Shown one piece after another: positions 11,650 to 20,736 of a stretch of DNA of 64,000 nt. Numbering within the stretch: position 1 is the stretch's first letter; each line of letters starts with the position of its first letter. Below the pieces are notes generated by a model that was not told the origin of the DNA, did not search any database, and saw nothing but the letters and a program-made list of their open reading frames with translations. Where the stretch lies: assembly GCA_903828565.1 (NCBI GenBank), contig CAIKMQ010000032.1, forward strand, positions 186,001 to 250,000, given 5' to 3'. This DNA is from an uncultured Leptolinea sp. (GTDB taxonomy: Bacteria; Chloroflexota; Anaerolineae; Anaerolineales; Anaerolineaceae). Both the position numbers and the translations under genes were made by a program.

Positions 11650-13818
11650 CTATCCACCATGCGCGGCGGATACTGCCAGCGCTTCAGGCATATCAATCCC
11701 TAACCGTTTCAAAGTTTCCTGCGTGGGAACACCATCCTTGTTCCAACCCCTGCGCAGATACACAGCATCCATTAACTTCTCATACTGTGCTTCACGGTAC
11801 TGCCTGGTCAGAAAGATCTTTTCCTGAATGCTCTTGCCTTCCGGGTTTATACCGATTACTTCGCGCAACTGGGTATCATACCGTTCAGTCAGGTTCTCGT
11901 ATTCCTCAACCGTGGCCGGCCCGATCAACCGGTAAGGAGGGTAATCGTGTTGACGGGTGCCGTAACCCATCCGTGCGCTGAATAGGCGCTGGAAGTTATA
12001 AACCTTTTCAGATTGCCACATCAGGTCTTCAGGGGAAGTTTTCTTACCCGTCAATCCTTCGAACAGCCAACAATAATTCTCAACATGCTCGGGGATCTTG
12101 GCGGGTTCTTTCGCGGTTTTATTGGAGACAGGAATAATGTCGTTCCAGATCAACTTACATAATCCATGCAAGCTGAACCAGGTCCGCCAGATGGGGAAAT
12201 AGTGTAGCGCCTCCGCTTTCGCTTCGAAAGTAGGCAGCTGTTTATGAACCATATCCATAAAGATCAACCAGGCTTCGTCGTGCTGCGGGCCTTTTGTGGC
12301 CATCGAATAACCGCCTTGCTGCGCGAGCGATTCCCGCGAGATATATTCTGATATCTCGAGGCCTTTGATCTCCATCCCCATATCCTGCAGCATCTGTGGA
12401 TCGGCCCCATATTTTTCAATAAAGAGGGCTTTCATAGCCCGGACACCCTGCCCGACAGTCACACCAAACCCTTCACCTCTTGCCATCTGATGCAGTAATT
12501 CAAAGGCGACTGGCGCGTTTCCCCAGGTCAACTCAAGGCCACCGGTTTTTTGTTTGTCGAGGATGCCTTTCTCGTAGCATTCGAAAGCGAAGGCGATGGA
12601 ATTGCCCACTGAGATGGTATCGATGCCGTATGTGTCGCAATAGAAACACAATTCCAACATGGCCGGTGGATCAAAAATTCCCAGGTTGGAGCCCAGGGCA
12701 CCGAGCGATTCGTATTCAGGGCCATCCACAAAGACGGCTTCACCTTTATAGGGGCCGGATTGCAGGTGATAATGCGGTACACCATGTGCGCATTGTAATG
12801 AACAGCCGTACCAGCAGCCGTCCGGTCCTCTAAAGTCGAACATGGATTTCCACACCTCACCATTGATCTTGCTGGCTTCGGGGTCAGAGCCGAACCGGAA
12901 ATTCTGAACGGGGAGGATATTGAACCGGTTCATGATCTCAATCAGGTAGGGAGTACCGTAGTGACGCATATCATTTTGCGAAGCATCAAAATCAGCGATT
13001 TCTTTGTTGATGCGTTTTCCTGCCGCGCGGATGAGATCCATATTTGCGACACCGTTGCTATCACCACCGGCCTCAGAGTATTTGACTACGATGGCTTTGA
13101 TATGCTTATCACGCAAAACGGTTCCTACGCCACCACGGGCAGCTTGTTTGATGCGAATTTCCTGCCTGCGGGGATCCCAGTAGCTGATGTTCAAACCACA
13201 CATGGGGATGTGCTCAGCAGCTTGCCCGGCAGACAGGACAGAAATCGCACGCCGGCCTTTATCTGTATCACCACCGTAAAGATCGGTCAGTTGCTTGCTT
13301 AACAGGTGTGTGTTGACTTCATCCAATGGAGCGGCTTCAATTTTTACCGTCCCGGTATCCCCATCAATAAGGATGACCACATCTTCTTTGGCTTTTCCCT
13401 GGATTTCAAGAGCGTCAAACCCGCTGAACTTCAACAGGGGGCCAAAATATCCACCGCCGTTGCTGTCGATAATGGATTTTGTCAGAGGCGAGAGGGTCAC
13501 AACTGTGCATTTTCCGCTTCCGGGGTATGCGGTGATACCGCCAATCGGCCCACCAGCAATGACGAGCTCATTTTGGTTGTCATTCCATTTCACATCTTTG
13601 GAGATGGCATTCCAGAGCAGCCAGAGGCAAAAGCCTTTTCCACCTGTGAAGGTGTCTTTCATCTTTTGATCCACTGGTTTGATCGTCATATTGTTGGTGT
13701 CCAGCTGGATATGCAGGGTCCGATTCGCATAGCCATGCACAACTGGTTGCAAAGCATACTTGAATTCTTTGATCACATGGTGAGATTGCTGAAGTTGGGT
13801 GACTGTCGCTAGGTTCAT
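11650..13818 (-). CDS. aor: Aldehyde:ferredoxin oxidoreductase (tungsten/molybdopterin enzyme)
   Basis: This 722-residue protein belongs to the aldehyde ferredoxin oxidoreductase family, which oxidises aldehydes to acids (or the reverse) with ferredoxin, using a bis-pterin tungsten cofactor and one [4Fe-4S] cluster. The N-terminal domain begins after a ~35-residue lead (NRTLHIQLDTN, then TGGKGFCLWLLWN). The cluster cysteines are seen as CWYGCSLQC (about 310-318) plus the late cysteine in HGLCKLIWND. The length is longer than the ~605-residue archaeal enzymes. The ATG at 13818 has GGAG 8 nt upstream and is preferred to one at 13851. The adjacent MoaD-like gene supports a pterin enzyme. Which aldehyde is used cannot be told. 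Confidence 0.92.
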   Translation of the reverse strand: MNLATVTQLQQSHHVIKEFKYALQPVVHGYANRTLHIQLDTNNMTIKPVDQKMKDTFTGGKGFCLWLLWNAISKDVKWNDNQNELVIAGGPIGGITAYPGSGKCTVVTLSPLTKSIIDSNGGGYFGPLLKFSGFDALEIQGKAKEDVVILIDGDTGTVKIEAAPLDEVNTHLLSKQLTDLYGGDTDKGRRAISVLSAGQAAEHIPMCGLNISYWDPRRQEIRIKQAARGGVGTVLRDKHIKAIVVKYSEAGGDSNGVANMDLIRAAGKRINKEIADFDASQNDMRHYGTPYLIEIMNRFNILPVQNFRFGSDPEASKINGEVWKSMFDFRGPDGCWYGCSLQCAHGVPHYHLQSGPYKGEAVFVDGPEYESLGALGSNLGIFDPPAMLELCFYCDTYGIDTISVGNSIAFAFECYEKGILDKQKTGGLELTWGNAPVAFELLHQMARGEGFGVTVGQGVRAMKALFIEKYGADPQMLQDMGMEIKGLEISEYISRESLAQQGGYSMATKGPQHDEAWLIFMDMVHKQLPTFEAKAEALHYFPIWRTWFSLHGLCKLIWNDIIPVSNKTAKEPAKIPEHVENYCWLFEGLTGKKTSPEDLMWQSEKVYNFQRLFSARMGYGTRQHDYPPYRLIGPATVEEYENLTERYDTQLREVIGINPEGKSIQEKIFLTRQYREAQYEKLMDAVYLRRGWNKDGVPTQETLKRLGIDMPEALAVSAAHGG

Positions 13819-14134
13819 GCTTCTCCATACCTTGATAAGTTTTGGGTTCACTGCGGTGTGTGTCCAAGATTATGCACTTTAAGTACGATGCAGATAGATC
13901 CTCCGCAAAAGGAACTTGGGCTGTAAAGTATTAATTTCATACGGATAAAGGATTCCCATAAATAGGAAAATGCCCACCAATAATCCTGTGACCCATAGAT
14001 GTCACTAATGCAAAATCGCATATGTTTCAGACGCTGACCATTCAGTAGAGCTATATGGTCAGCGTGTATTTCCTATAGTATAGCATTTATCGGGTGAACT
14101 TGCTTTGAAGTGAGTGAATGAATTGGTGACCAGG
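13819..14134. other. Intergenic region upstream of the aldehyde oxidoreductase, with a hairpin
   Basis: This 316-bp stretch has no credible gene. It must hold the oxidoreductase promoter; only weak boxes were found (for example CATAAT on the minus strand at 13870-13875). At 14031-14065 there is a perfect 11-bp inverted repeat (ACGCTGACCAT/ATGGTCAGCGT) with a 13-nt loop. It lies about 70 nt beyond the prenyl synthase stop. Neither side has a convincing T run, so it may be a weak terminator or an operator. Confidence 0.6.
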
Positions 14135-18726: not shown

Positions 18727-18730
18727 CAAA

Positions 18731-18755
18731 AAAGGGCAGGTAAAACCTGCCCTTT
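18731..18755 (-). terminator. Rho-independent terminator after the SPFH gene
   Basis: A perfect 11-bp stem (AAAGGGCAGGT/ACCTGCCCTTT) with a 3-nt loop is followed on the minus strand by TTTTTTTGTTGCC. It ends the two-gene SPFH operon 15 nt after the stop. Confidence 0.92.
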
Positions 18756-18769
18756 CCAAGCGAAGTGGA

Positions 18770-19816
18770 TTAACCTTTTAAGTAGGTTTCAACAGCTTCT
18801 TTACTAATACGGTAGGCATTACCAATCTTACGAGCCTTCAACTCACCAGCAGTGATGGCTGCCATTACATCTTCTTCAGATACCTTCAATAAGGAAGCTG
18901 CTTCAGCCGGGGTCATTACATCGGGTATCCCCGCAGCTTTACCAGCAGCGGCAGCAGCACCTGCCGCATTTTGGCCGACACCCTGCAATGATTGGCTGAG
19001 TACATTTCCTATACCCATGCCTGCACCGATGCCTGCTGTGAGGCCGGCACCACCGTTAGGATTCTGGGCGGCATCCCGCATGGCGTCCGCAGCCTGAAGC
19101 TGGGTATAAGTAGCCATATCCAGCATACCCATCGCGCGAAGCTCTTCGGCGCTCTTTTCTGAAGGTTTGAGGTTGCCGATATAGAAGGATTTCAGCGTCA
19201 GACCGATGGCTTTGAAATCATCCTGGGCTTTGGCACGAATGCCGGCCCCCAGTTCTTCTGTGAGGGCCAGAAGTTGAGGGACGGAATTCTTGGCTGCAGT
19301 CTCTGATAGCAGATCCTGTAACTTGCTCAGCAGCATGGTGCGTAAGCGGTTTTCAATATCGGCCATCCGATAGATGCCTTGCGCGCCGCAGATCTGAACT
19401 ACGAACTGCTGCGGATCACTGACCTGAACGCTGTAGGAACCGAAGCCCTGAAGCAGCGCAACACCAAGCCCCATGCCTGGGTTGGTGACGATGATTGGTT
19501 GCGGGGTACCCCACTTGCGGTCAGCGAATTCACGCATGGATATATAGTAGACTTCAGCGGTGAATGGAGTGCGGTCATTGAATGCTTTTCCCACCAGGTC
19601 AATAACTTTGGGGATGTTGGCGGTGATGATGGTGTGCCGACCCGGACCGAATGCATCCAGAGCTTTACCATCGCGGAAGAAGATCACTTTTTGTGATTCA
19701 CGCACAATCACCTGGCTGCCGATGCGCAAATCCGCAATACCTTGCTCGGGAAAGCGGTGGACGATTTCATCGGCCATTTCACTTGGATATTCCACAACAT
19801 CAAAAATTCTAGCCAT
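18770..19816 (-). CDS. SPFH-domain protein (COG4260/YdjI-like) with C-terminal HTH domain
   Basis: This 348-residue protein has three parts. Residues ~1-250 form an SPFH/band-7-like domain of the COG4260 (YdjI, 'virion core protein-like') type: FDVVEYPSEMADEIVHRFP, then IRIGSQVIV-like and FGPGRHTI stretches, and FADRKWGTPQPI. Residues ~255-300 are Gly/Ala-rich. Residues 301-348 are an excisionase-type helix-turn-helix (MTPAEAASLLKVSEEDV..., ending with YRISKEAVETYLKG). COG4260 proteins more often end in a zinc ribbon or GYF-like segment. No transmembrane helix is evident. It is co-transcribed 23 nt after a 174-residue partner. In Bacillus, YdjI belongs to a PspA-linked membrane-stress operon; a similar role here is inference. 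Confidence 0.85.
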   Translation of the reverse strand: MARIFDVVEYPSEMADEIVHRFPEQGIADLRIGSQVIVRESQKVIFFRDGKALDAFGPGRHTIITANIPKVIDLVGKAFNDRTPFTAEVYYISMREFADRKWGTPQPIIVTNPGMGLGVALLQGFGSYSVQVSDPQQFVVQICGAQGIYRMADIENRLRTMLLSKLQDLLSETAAKNSVPQLLALTEELGAGIRAKAQDDFKAIGLTLKSFYIGNLKPSEKSAEELRAMGMLDMATYTQLQAADAMRDAAQNPNGGAGLTAGIGAGMGIGNVLSQSLQGVGQNAAGAAAAAGKAAGIPDVMTPAEAASLLKVSEEDVMAAITAGELKARKIGNAYRISKEAVETYLKG

Positions 19817-19839
19817 TATTTGCTCTCCGTTTCGATAAT

Positions 19840-20364
19840 TTACTGGGCAGTGGAATTGGTGATCACTTCACTGCGTTTATTAAAGACACTGACGCACTGA
19901 TCTGCAGCCACCGTAAGGTTGCGGATTGCAGCCGGCAATCCATCTGTACCAATGGATGTCTCGACATTATCGATCGCATGCCCGACAACTTCCACCTGAT
20001 CCACCATGGATAGATCGTAGTTATATAGTAATTCAAGTTCTTTCTCATTGATCTTCACCGCATCAAAAAAGCCTGAGTATCCGTATGTGGCAGCTTTGAC
20101 GCGATCGATCACCTGGCGGATTTTGATGGCACCAGCTTCCAGATCATCAATCATGGAAATCGCACCTTGCGAGATCAGGTCGCGTTGCAGAGTGGAAATT
20201 CGCCCCCATGCTTCTTCGAAACGGGCAGCCAGCATGTCGCGGACCAGTTTATCAGATGATCGGCGGTTCTCCCGTTCAAAATATCCCTTGAACCCCGGGA
20301 TCATTCCCAGCAATTTTCGGATGGCATCCTGTTGGTTTACCACTTGGTTAAAAAGGTTATCCAT
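19840..20364 (-). CDS. Helical protein of unknown function, partner of the SPFH protein
   Basis: This 174-residue protein is not recognised. It looks largely alpha-helical and soluble, with a charged central part (RDMLAARFEEAWGRISTLQRD, broken here as about residues 43-63, and IRQVIDRVKAATYGYSGFFD about 82-101) that could form a helical bundle. There is no membrane segment or signal peptide. The ATG at 20364 is chosen because of the excellent AGGAGGAGC site directly upstream; longer readings run through the promoter. It has its own consensus promoter and lies 23 nt ahead of the SPFH-HTH gene, with one terminator after both, so the two proteins probably act together. PspA-like scaffolding is a possibility but not shown. 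Confidence 0.8.
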   Translation of the reverse strand: MDNLFNQVVNQQDAIRKLLGMIPGFKGYFERENRRSSDKLVRDMLAARFEEAWGRISTLQRDLISQGAISMIDDLEAGAIKIRQVIDRVKAATYGYSGFFDAVKINEKELELLYNYDLSMVDQVEVVGHAIDNVETSIGTDGLPAAIRNLTVAADQCVSVFNKRSEVITNSTAQ

Positions 20365-20395
20365 TGCTCCTCCTGTTGATCTTTTCAATGAATTC

Positions 20396-20424
20396 ATTAT
20401 AGATAATAATACATTCCTGCACAA
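20396..20424 (-). promoter_or_regulatory. Sigma-70-type promoter of the SPFH operon
   Basis: On the minus strand TTGTGC (20419-20424) and a perfect TATAAT (20396-20401) are exactly 17 bp apart, about 32 bp before the ATG of the 174-residue protein. Confidence 0.8.
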
Positions 20425-20583: not shown

Positions 20584-20736
20584 ATGAAACTGTTCACCCG
20601 TAATGAAAAAGGTCAAACCCTGATTGAATACGCTCTAATCATCGCCCTGGTTGCTATTGTGGTGGTTGTTGCGCTGAAATTGCTTGGCCCAGCCATCAGC
20701 AATACCTTCACTGGCATCGCTACTCAGCTCCCGTAA
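20584..20736 (+). CDS. flp: Flp/Fap-type pilin (class IVb)
   Basis: This 50-residue pilin subunit of a Tad-type pilus has a short basic leader MKLFTRNEKG ending in glycine 10. The mature hydrophobic helix begins QTLIEYALIIALVAIVVVV, with the conserved glutamate at mature position 5 (E15) followed by tyrosine. Prepilin peptidase would cut after G10; no such peptidase gene is in the window. The ATG at 20584 is chosen because AAGGAG lies 8-13 nt upstream; an in-frame ATG at 20521 would add a polar leader unlike any pilin. A strong terminator directly follows, so pilin is made in excess over the assembly proteins. Confidence 0.93.
   Translation: MKLFTRNEKGQTLIEYALIIALVAIVVVVALKLLGPAISNTFTGIATQLP

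What the first reader, a model, noticed from the sequence alone, without database searches (positions are those of the whole stretch)
18770..20364. Two-gene unit: SPFH protein with a DNA-binding-type tail plus an unknown helical partner
A COG4260-type SPFH protein ends in a complete excisionase-type HTH (residues 301-348) instead of the zinc ribbon or GYF-like tail I know for this group. It is co-transcribed with an unrecognised 174-residue helical protein from a strong promoter and closed by one terminator. SPFH proteins scaffold membranes, so a DNA-binding tail suggests linking membrane state, or a large SPFH assembly, to DNA or transcription.
Basis: partly seen in the sequence, partly recalled or inferred. 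Interest (0 to 1): 0.65.

Follow-up and report, generated by a model that had tools for sequence, protein, structure and literature searches.

The report
Membrane scaffold with repurposed DNA-binding-type tail
A bacterial membrane-scaffold protein and its small helical partner form a widely conserved pair in one group of bacteria, and the scaffold ends in a DNA-binding-type fold whose DNA-reading surface has turned acidic, so it probably grips proteins rather than DNA.

Summary
The anatomy is right: an SPFH protein (348 aa) ends in a complete HTH_17 domain and follows a 174-aa helical gene by 23 bp, behind a TATAAT promoter and before one strong terminator. The pair is real: of 120 class genomes both genes occur in 99, neither in 17, one alone in 4; in 85 of 95 the partner lies upstream on the same strand. 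The DNA-tether reading is not supported. The HTH is one of five exchanged C-terminal modules (HTH 40, SHOCT-like 31, zinc ribbon 29, helical 7, GYF_2 1 of 108 orthologs; 18 changes on the tree), and its recognition helix is acidic (mean -2.9 against +1.1 in 30 ordinary HTH_17 domains). Best reading: a YdjI-like SPFH scaffold with a near-constant helical companion, its wHTH recycled as a protein-binding or self-assembly module. In 4 relatives PspA sits between the two genes, hinting at phage-shock/ESCRT-III biology; the window genome has no detectable PspA. In a sister family molybdenum-hydroxylase genes lie beside or between them. New variant of a known kind; function unproven.

The parts
19840..20364 (-). 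helical partner, 174 aa; four long predicted helices; distant relative of the LIMLP_15305 family
   Evidence: ortholog upstream of SPFH in 85 of 95 class genomes
18770..19816 (-). SPFH (Band_7_1) protein, 348 aa, YdjI-like group
   Evidence: predicted fold matches stomatin, prohibitin and HflK/C
19151..19762 (-). SPFH/Band_7_1 domain, residues 19-222
18920..19066 (-). Gly/Ala-rich low-complexity linker, residues 251-299 (13 G, 12 A of 49)
   Evidence: pLDDT block means under 60
18773..18916 (-). C-terminal winged HTH (HTH_17), residues 301-348, with acidic recognition helix 313-323 and basic wing 324-340
20419..20424 (-). -35-like TTGTGC (3 of 6)
20396..20401 (-). -10 TATAAT, 17-nt spacer
20369..20374 (-). 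ribosome-binding site AGGAGG of the partner gene
18728..18757 (-). intrinsic terminator closing the unit, before a sucC-like gene (named by eye)
   Evidence: -21.3 kcal/mol, z -3.8

Best explanation
The two genes encode a cytoplasmic SPFH scaffold of the YdjI/COG4260 group and its companion. The SPFH protein assembles into a ring or cage at the membrane (inferred from the family fold). The helical partner, probably made from the same mRNA, works with it as a subunit or adaptor (co-occurrence shown, contact inferred). Beyond the SPFH domain a flexible Gly/Ala linker presents a small C-terminal module that decides what the ring binds or how it closes. In the class this module is swapped among zinc ribbon, SHOCT-like, GYF_2, a helical segment and a winged HTH. 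In the window's lineage it is a winged HTH that has lost the DNA-reading residues of its recognition helix and become an acidic helix beside a basic wing; it most likely binds protein, either a client or the neighbouring tail of the same ring. Shown: the architecture, the pairing, the module swapping, and loss of DNA-contact residues with conservation of the fold. Inferred: ring assembly, partner contact, what the tail binds, and a membrane-stress role.
For: Both genes in 99, neither in 17, one alone in 4 of 120 class genomes (phi 0.87); among the 87 genomes at least 90% complete and at most 5% contaminated SPFH in 79 and partner in 78, 86 of 87 agreeing (read). Partner upstream on the same strand in 85 of 95, within 250 bp in 78. 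Tail types of 108 orthologs: HTH 40, SHOCT-like 31, ZnR 29, helical 7, GYF 1, with 18 changes on the SPFH-core tree, HTH 11 of which at least 6 are forced by well supported branches. Representative tails by Pfam: DZR, SHOCT, GYF_2, HTH_17. Recognition helix mean charge -2.9 against +1.1 in 30 ordinary HTH_17 domains, wing equal (+4.3 against +4.0); repeated with a filter on the wing only: 64 distinct tails, mean -3.0, Asp at position 16 in 63 of 64. Predicted SPFH half resembles stomatin, prohibitin and HflK/C structures, E down to 7.8e-10. YdjI, a soluble SPFH protein with low-complexity region and zinc finger, self-interacts and binds PspA (passages of PMC8581546). PspA lies between partner and SPFH in 4 genomes.
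Against: No complex prediction or binding test was possible. The wing stays basic (K27 in 37 of 39, A28 39, K/R29 39, K/R30 35, R36 39) and could still touch nucleic acid or phosphate. The 30 comparison domains are high-scoring HTH_17 hits of the class and two of them are identical in sequence, so they lean to the canonical type. Genes that lie side by side drop out together from incomplete genomes, which inflates the co-occurrence; the SPFH counts include four genomes with fragments only. Outside the class some SPFH relatives have no partner found by the single-sequence search (e.g. G150, G166, G066). What the modules bind is unknown; SHOCT was tested by its authors and did not appear to act as an oligomerisation domain (passages of PMC3581485).
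Confidence: 0.6

Rival explanations
1. The HTH tethers DNA: the SPFH assembly at the membrane binds promoters or the nucleoid and links membrane state to transcription.
For: Scores above the curated cut-offs of HTH_17 and TIGR01764; wing as basic as in ordinary HTH_17 domains and its Arg36 invariant in 39 of 39; conserved in 25 of 25 family and order genomes; the one HTH structure among the 50 listed fold matches is DNA-bound BldC, E 0.019, rmsd 1.8 over 50 columns, 32% identity.
Against: Recognition helix net acidic in 39 of 39 tails; equivalents of BldC Lys26, Thr27, Thr29, Arg30 and Lys33 are mostly E/A/Q, D, L/I/V/M, A/S and E/N/Q/D; in BldC R30A alone essentially abolished binding. The module is exchanged for SHOCT-like, GYF_2 or zinc-ribbon tails in relatives.
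Confidence: 0.12
2. The tails of neighbouring SPFH subunits pack head to tail, as BldC and RdfS do, so that the wHTH is a self-assembly cap of the ring, with the acidic helix against the basic wing of the next tail (a special case of the best explanation).
For: Charge pattern; BldC's Arg22-Glu16' bridge positions are K/R in 32 of 39 and E in 32 of 39 tails, against 13 of 30 and 19 of 30 in ordinary domains (Fisher p 0.001 and 0.10); RdfS oligomerises head to tail without DNA (passages of PMC11963761).
Against: Other BldC interface residues are not kept (Trp31 to A/L/M, Ile40 to K/R by the ungapped alignment); the Glu enrichment is not significant; no oligomer was modelled. BldC is a monomer without DNA.
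Confidence: 0.2
3. The partner is a divergent PspA/ESCRT-III protein, or stands in for PspA, so the pair is a minimal phage-shock system.
For: PspA not detected in the window genome nor in the four order genomes (family f2); PspA sits between partner and SPFH in 4 relatives, and in these 4 the partner is fused to DUF4178, a domain found in some PspA operons (PMC11237479, section 19). These are the 4 longest of 116 partner proteins.
Against: Profile comparison finds no similarity to those PspA proteins (probability 0.1%; the PspA profile has 4 sequences only). In those 4 genomes partner and PspA are both present. PspA presence is not tied to SPFH in the class (64 of 101 SPFH genomes against 9 of 19 without; p 0.21).
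Confidence: 0.12
4. The pair assists assembly or maturation of a molybdenum hydroxylase or similar complex.
For: In family f2 the partner heads an XdhB-small-XdhA cluster in 9 of 9 genomes looked at (of 17), and XdhC lies upstream of SPFH in 7 of 8; in G046 the order is partner-XdhB-small-XdhA-XdhC-SPFH on one strand.
Against: One family, so probably one event; no such genes beside the pair in the window; in G028 an alpha/beta-hydrolase stands in the place of XdhC.
Confidence: 0.06

Closest known systems
B. subtilis YdjI (SPFH) with PspA, YdjG and YdjH
   Same: [quoted passage not shown] pspA lies beside the SPFH gene in 4 relatives of the window's pair (passages of PMC8581546)
   Different: HTH in place of the zinc finger; a helical partner gene without detected similarity to PspA; no PspA found in the window genome
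PF13421 Band_7_1 proteins with SHOCT or zinc-ribbon tails
   Same: Same core; SHOCT is most commonly associated with this domain (passages of PMC3581485)
   Different: Winged-HTH tail
BldC / excisionase-type winged HTH (HTH_17)
   Same: Fold and wing; 6ama_B E 0.019, rmsd 1.8, 32% identity
   Different: C-terminal module of a scaffold; recognition helix acidic, DNA-contact residues lost
NCBIfam NF047596 LIMLP_15305 family (partner)
   Same: Detectable over 7-168 of 174 residues; 45 of 45 aligned partners match at E 0.001 or better
   Different: Score 56.7 against a cut-off of 210; the only paper found lists the gene in a table of non-coding RNAs, without a function (passage of PMC7567364)
Phage-shock operons with band-7 proteins (PMC11237479)
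   Same: Band-7 protein with zinc ribbon next to PspA; DUF4178 in some operons (section 19)
   Different: That section names neither this helical partner nor an HTH-tailed band-7 protein

Membership tests
PF13421 / YdjI-like SPFH | Band_7_1 domain over the gathering score | tested here: met
   148.9 bits against 24
PF13421 / YdjI-like SPFH | Low-complexity region after the SPFH domain | tested here: met
   Residues 251-299, 13 G and 12 A of 49
PF13421 / YdjI-like SPFH | C-terminal zinc finger as in YdjI | tested here: not met
   HTH_17 instead; zinc ribbon in 29 of 108 orthologs
PF13421 / YdjI-like SPFH | Recruits PspA to the membrane | not testable with these tools
   No PspA detected in the window genome
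HTH_17 / excisionase-type DNA-binding domain | Profile match over cut-off | tested here: met
   45.7 against 27 and 44.4 against 28.8 bits
HTH_17 / excisionase-type DNA-binding domain | Basic or polar DNA-contacting recognition helix | tested here: not met
   Net acidic in 39 of 39 tails
BldC family | Residues that contact DNA (Lys26, Thr27, Thr29, Arg30, Lys33) | tested here: not met
   Replaced in most tails
BldC family | Head-to-tail oligomer | not testable with these tools
NF047596 LIMLP_15305 family | Score at or over the curated cut-off of 210 bits | tested here: not met
   56.7 bits; distant homolog only
Phage-shock (PSP) system | PspA (PF04012) in the genome or operon | tested here: not met
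   0 in the window genome, with control genomes ringing; present between the two genes in 4 relatives
ESCRT-III/PspA superfamily (for the partner) | Profile similarity to PspA | tested here: inconclusive
   hhalign probability 0.1% against a profile of only four PspA proteins of the same loci
Anti-phage defence systems (PADLOC) | Match of the pair to a defence model | tested here: inconclusive
   Only the HTH matches mad1, weakly (18.3 bits, E 5e-4); partner none

The most novel reading that the evidence does not exclude
A DNA-binding fold recycled as an assembly cap: winged-HTH tails on an SPFH ring polymerise head to tail, acidic helix on basic wing, without DNA, and exchanging this cap for SHOCT, GYF or zinc-ribbon modules retargets one membrane scaffold and its near-constant helical companion to different clients, with PspA/ESCRT-III or a molybdenum hydroxylase as such clients in particular lineages.
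Probability: 0.18. Interest if true: 0.72.

Novelty: new variant of a known kind. Interest (0 to 1): 0.46.

Why it matters
SPFH proteins scaffold membranes, but what the tails of this group do is, to my knowledge, poorly known. Here one conserved core with one conserved companion carries five kinds of exchangeable tail, a natural domain-swap series that makes the question testable. A winged HTH that keeps its fold and wing while its DNA-reading helix turns acidic warns against calling such proteins DNA-binding from a profile match. The companion gives a handle on a Band_7 partner family for which I found no function, and its placement beside PspA in a few relatives hints at membrane-stress systems.

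Tried and rejected
Rejected: DNA tether as leading idea (acidic recognition helix). Partner as PspA relative: hhalign probability 0.1%, with a thin PspA profile, so not excluded. A known fold for the partner: no Foldseek match at E 0.001 or better; best second-look Z 13.0 (4u5a_D, 135 residues, rmsd 3.2), at the level that tool calls usual for helical models, so no function read from it. By sequence no solved relative of the SPFH profile at E 0.01 and only weak hits (best E 0.037) for the partner profile. Partner on plasmids: no match with two queries. HTH tail as replacement of the neighbouring PCI-like protein: tail type and presence of that gene do not exclude each other (16 of 26 HTH loci have it). 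Defence system: nothing convincing. Prior description: searches for SPFH + YdjI + PspA, SPFH + helix-turn-helix + SHOCT, SPFH + excisionase, LIMLP_15305, DUF4178 + PspA, and Band_7_1 + SPFH + SHOCT + zinc ribbon + GYF in the held PMC library; from listings and the passages opened I saw no description of an HTH-tailed SPFH protein or of this partner's function. Subscription papers and domain databases were not searchable. Position 16 counts are partly circular (the filter demanded D/E there); searches are not.

Rows dropped or uneven: duplicate loci L001, L027-L031; L069 left out of the charge comparison because its tail is interrupted by unread bases, so 39 of 40; of the 30 comparison domains L154 and L155 are identical; 6 of 101 class genomes with only fragments or contig-end pieces of SPFH left out of the linkage counts, so 95. 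For L116 and L121 the partner is counted as absent, although a weak match lies just upstream of SPFH. Tail labels were set by pattern and, for 15 of 108 rows, by eye; only representatives were checked by Pfam, and the one SHOCT-like tail of the commonest sort that was scanned matched SHOCT only at E 0.078 (L054). The SPFH tree has long branches and was a quick search.

Full report
OBSERVATION. The finding is in the sequence at its coordinates. On the minus strand a TATAAT -10 with a weak -35 (TTGTGC, 17-nt spacer) and AGGAGG precede a 174-codon gene (20364-19840); 23 bp later comes a 348-codon gene (19816-18770), closed by a hairpin of -21.3 kcal/mol with a U run. The larger protein is Band_7_1 (PF13421, E 2e-43) plus HTH_17 (PF12728, E 8e-12). 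The smaller has no Pfam family but is a distant homolog of the LIMLP_15305 family of NCBIfam, far below its cut-off. Each has one match in the window's genome.

THE PAIR. In a sample of 120 genomes of the class, SPFH rings in 101 and the partner profile in 101: both 99, neither 17, SPFH alone 2, partner alone 2 (Fisher p 1.5e-16). Since neighbours vanish together from incomplete genomes this is inflated, but among the 87 good genomes 86 still agree (read). Of 95 class genomes with usable SPFH sequence the partner is upstream on the same strand in 85, within 250 bp in 78. In a phylum sample all 25 genomes of the window's family and order have both genes and an HTH tail. In the window's family (7) and in f3 (1) the genes are adjacent; in f2 (17) they are not, by the coordinates. 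Family f11 (4 genomes) is also unlinked. The class is probably Anaerolineae: L166, whose partner is 100% identical to that of G317 on a contig of the same length, is titled so. Over the whole phylum sample the partner was found in 43 of 301 genomes (single-sequence search).

THE TAILS. After the SPFH core and a Gly/Ala-rich linker, 108 orthologs carry HTH (40), SHOCT-like (31), zinc ribbons (29), a helical segment (7) or GYF_2 (1) (Pfam on representatives). A few more GYF-like tails are visible by eye in the titled contigs. On a tree of the cores the labels need 18 changes (4 would be the least), HTH 11, at least 6 forced by well supported branches. Gain and loss cannot be told apart, as the tree is unrooted, and long branches make some joins unsure. 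The shared signature of the HTH tails suggests one origin of the module and repeated exchange (inference).

IS THE HTH A DNA READER? Against 30 high-scoring HTH_17 domains of the class, 39 SPFH tails have a recognition helix of mean charge -2.9 (range -5 to -1) against +1.1 (-1 to +4), no K/R in 36 of 39 against at least one in 30 of 30, and Asp at position 16 in 38 of 39 where 29 of 30 have Thr. The wing is equally basic (+4.3 against +4.0). With a filter on the wing alone, 64 distinct tails give the same picture. From passages of the BldC paper (PMC5859096), DNA contacts include Lys26, Thr27, Thr29, Arg30, Trp31, Lys33 and wing residues His46, Arg47, Arg48; by the alignment (tail position = BldC number minus 11) the helix contacts are lost and Arg47 is kept. 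Two positions of the BldC head-to-tail bridge are kept (E 32 of 39, K/R 32 of 39), other interface positions are not. The tail is predicted with pLDDT about 90 and resembles BldC.

STRUCTURE. The SPFH half matches stomatin, prohibitin and HflK/C structures (E down to 7.8e-10). A distant bacterial SPFH homolog forms a 24-mer enclosing a compartment on the membrane (passage of PMC10936438). The partner is predicted as four long helices and a short N-terminal one, pLDDT 84, without a telling match.

WIDER NEIGHBOURHOOD. Of 102 distinct loci with at least 1.8 kb upstream of the partner, 65 have on the same strand a small protein with two hydrophobic stretches, a PCI-like winged helix (over the Pfam cut-off in one of four scanned) and a zinc ribbon, and 52 a DUF2207 protein. 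The window genome and the three others of its family gave no match to the former. In four genomes (G358, G383, G399, G401) PspA lies between partner and SPFH, and in all four the partner carries a C-terminal DUF4178; they are the four longest of 116 partner proteins. PspA is not detected in the window genome and present in 73 of 120 class genomes, without significant association with SPFH. In family f2 molybdenum-hydroxylase genes stand beside the two genes: partner-XdhB-small-XdhA in 9 of 9 genomes looked at (of 17), XdhC upstream of SPFH in 7 of 8, all in one run in G046.

MECHANISM. Best supported: a YdjI-like SPFH scaffold and a near-constant helical companion; the C-terminal module, exchangeable, recruits clients or closes the ring; in this lineage the module is a winged HTH that has given up reading DNA. 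YdjI in B. subtilis self-interacts and binds PspA (passages of PMC8581546); phage-shock band-7 operons are described in PMC11237479 (section 19). What the tail binds, and that partner and SPFH touch, is inference.

VERDICT. Observation confirmed; DNA-link interpretation not supported, the pair strongly supported. New variant of a known kind. Of the papers I saw listings, abstracts, passages and, for PMC11237479, section 19.

Noticed in passing
L288 3717-10237; also L280-L287, L289-L292, L295, L296: In family f2 a xanthine-dehydrogenase-type molybdenum-hydroxylase cluster (XdhB, a small unknown protein of about 140 aa, XdhA, XdhC) lies between or beside partner and SPFH genes.
   Followed up: partly
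L095, L106, L084, L107: PspA gene between partner and SPFH; in these four loci the partner carries a C-terminal DUF4178 domain.
   Followed up: partly
e.g. L079:2876-3409, L207:4142-4684, L093:2720-3262: Small protein with two hydrophobic stretches, PCI-like winged helix and zinc ribbon, on the same strand near the pair in 65 of 102 loci; DUF2207 protein in 52.
   Followed up: partly
L103, L105, L106, L112, L115, L116: A C-terminal helical segment of SPFH proteins (about 100 aa, no Pfam match in L112) that may be an undescribed tail module.
   Followed up: no
window 20584-20736 and onward, + strand: Flp-type pilin-like small gene followed by CpaB/TadA/TadB/TadC-like genes, divergent from the pair; judged by eye from the translations.
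   Followed up: no
window 11650-13851, - strand: Aldehyde:ferredoxin oxidoreductase-like gene, judged by eye.
   Followed up: no
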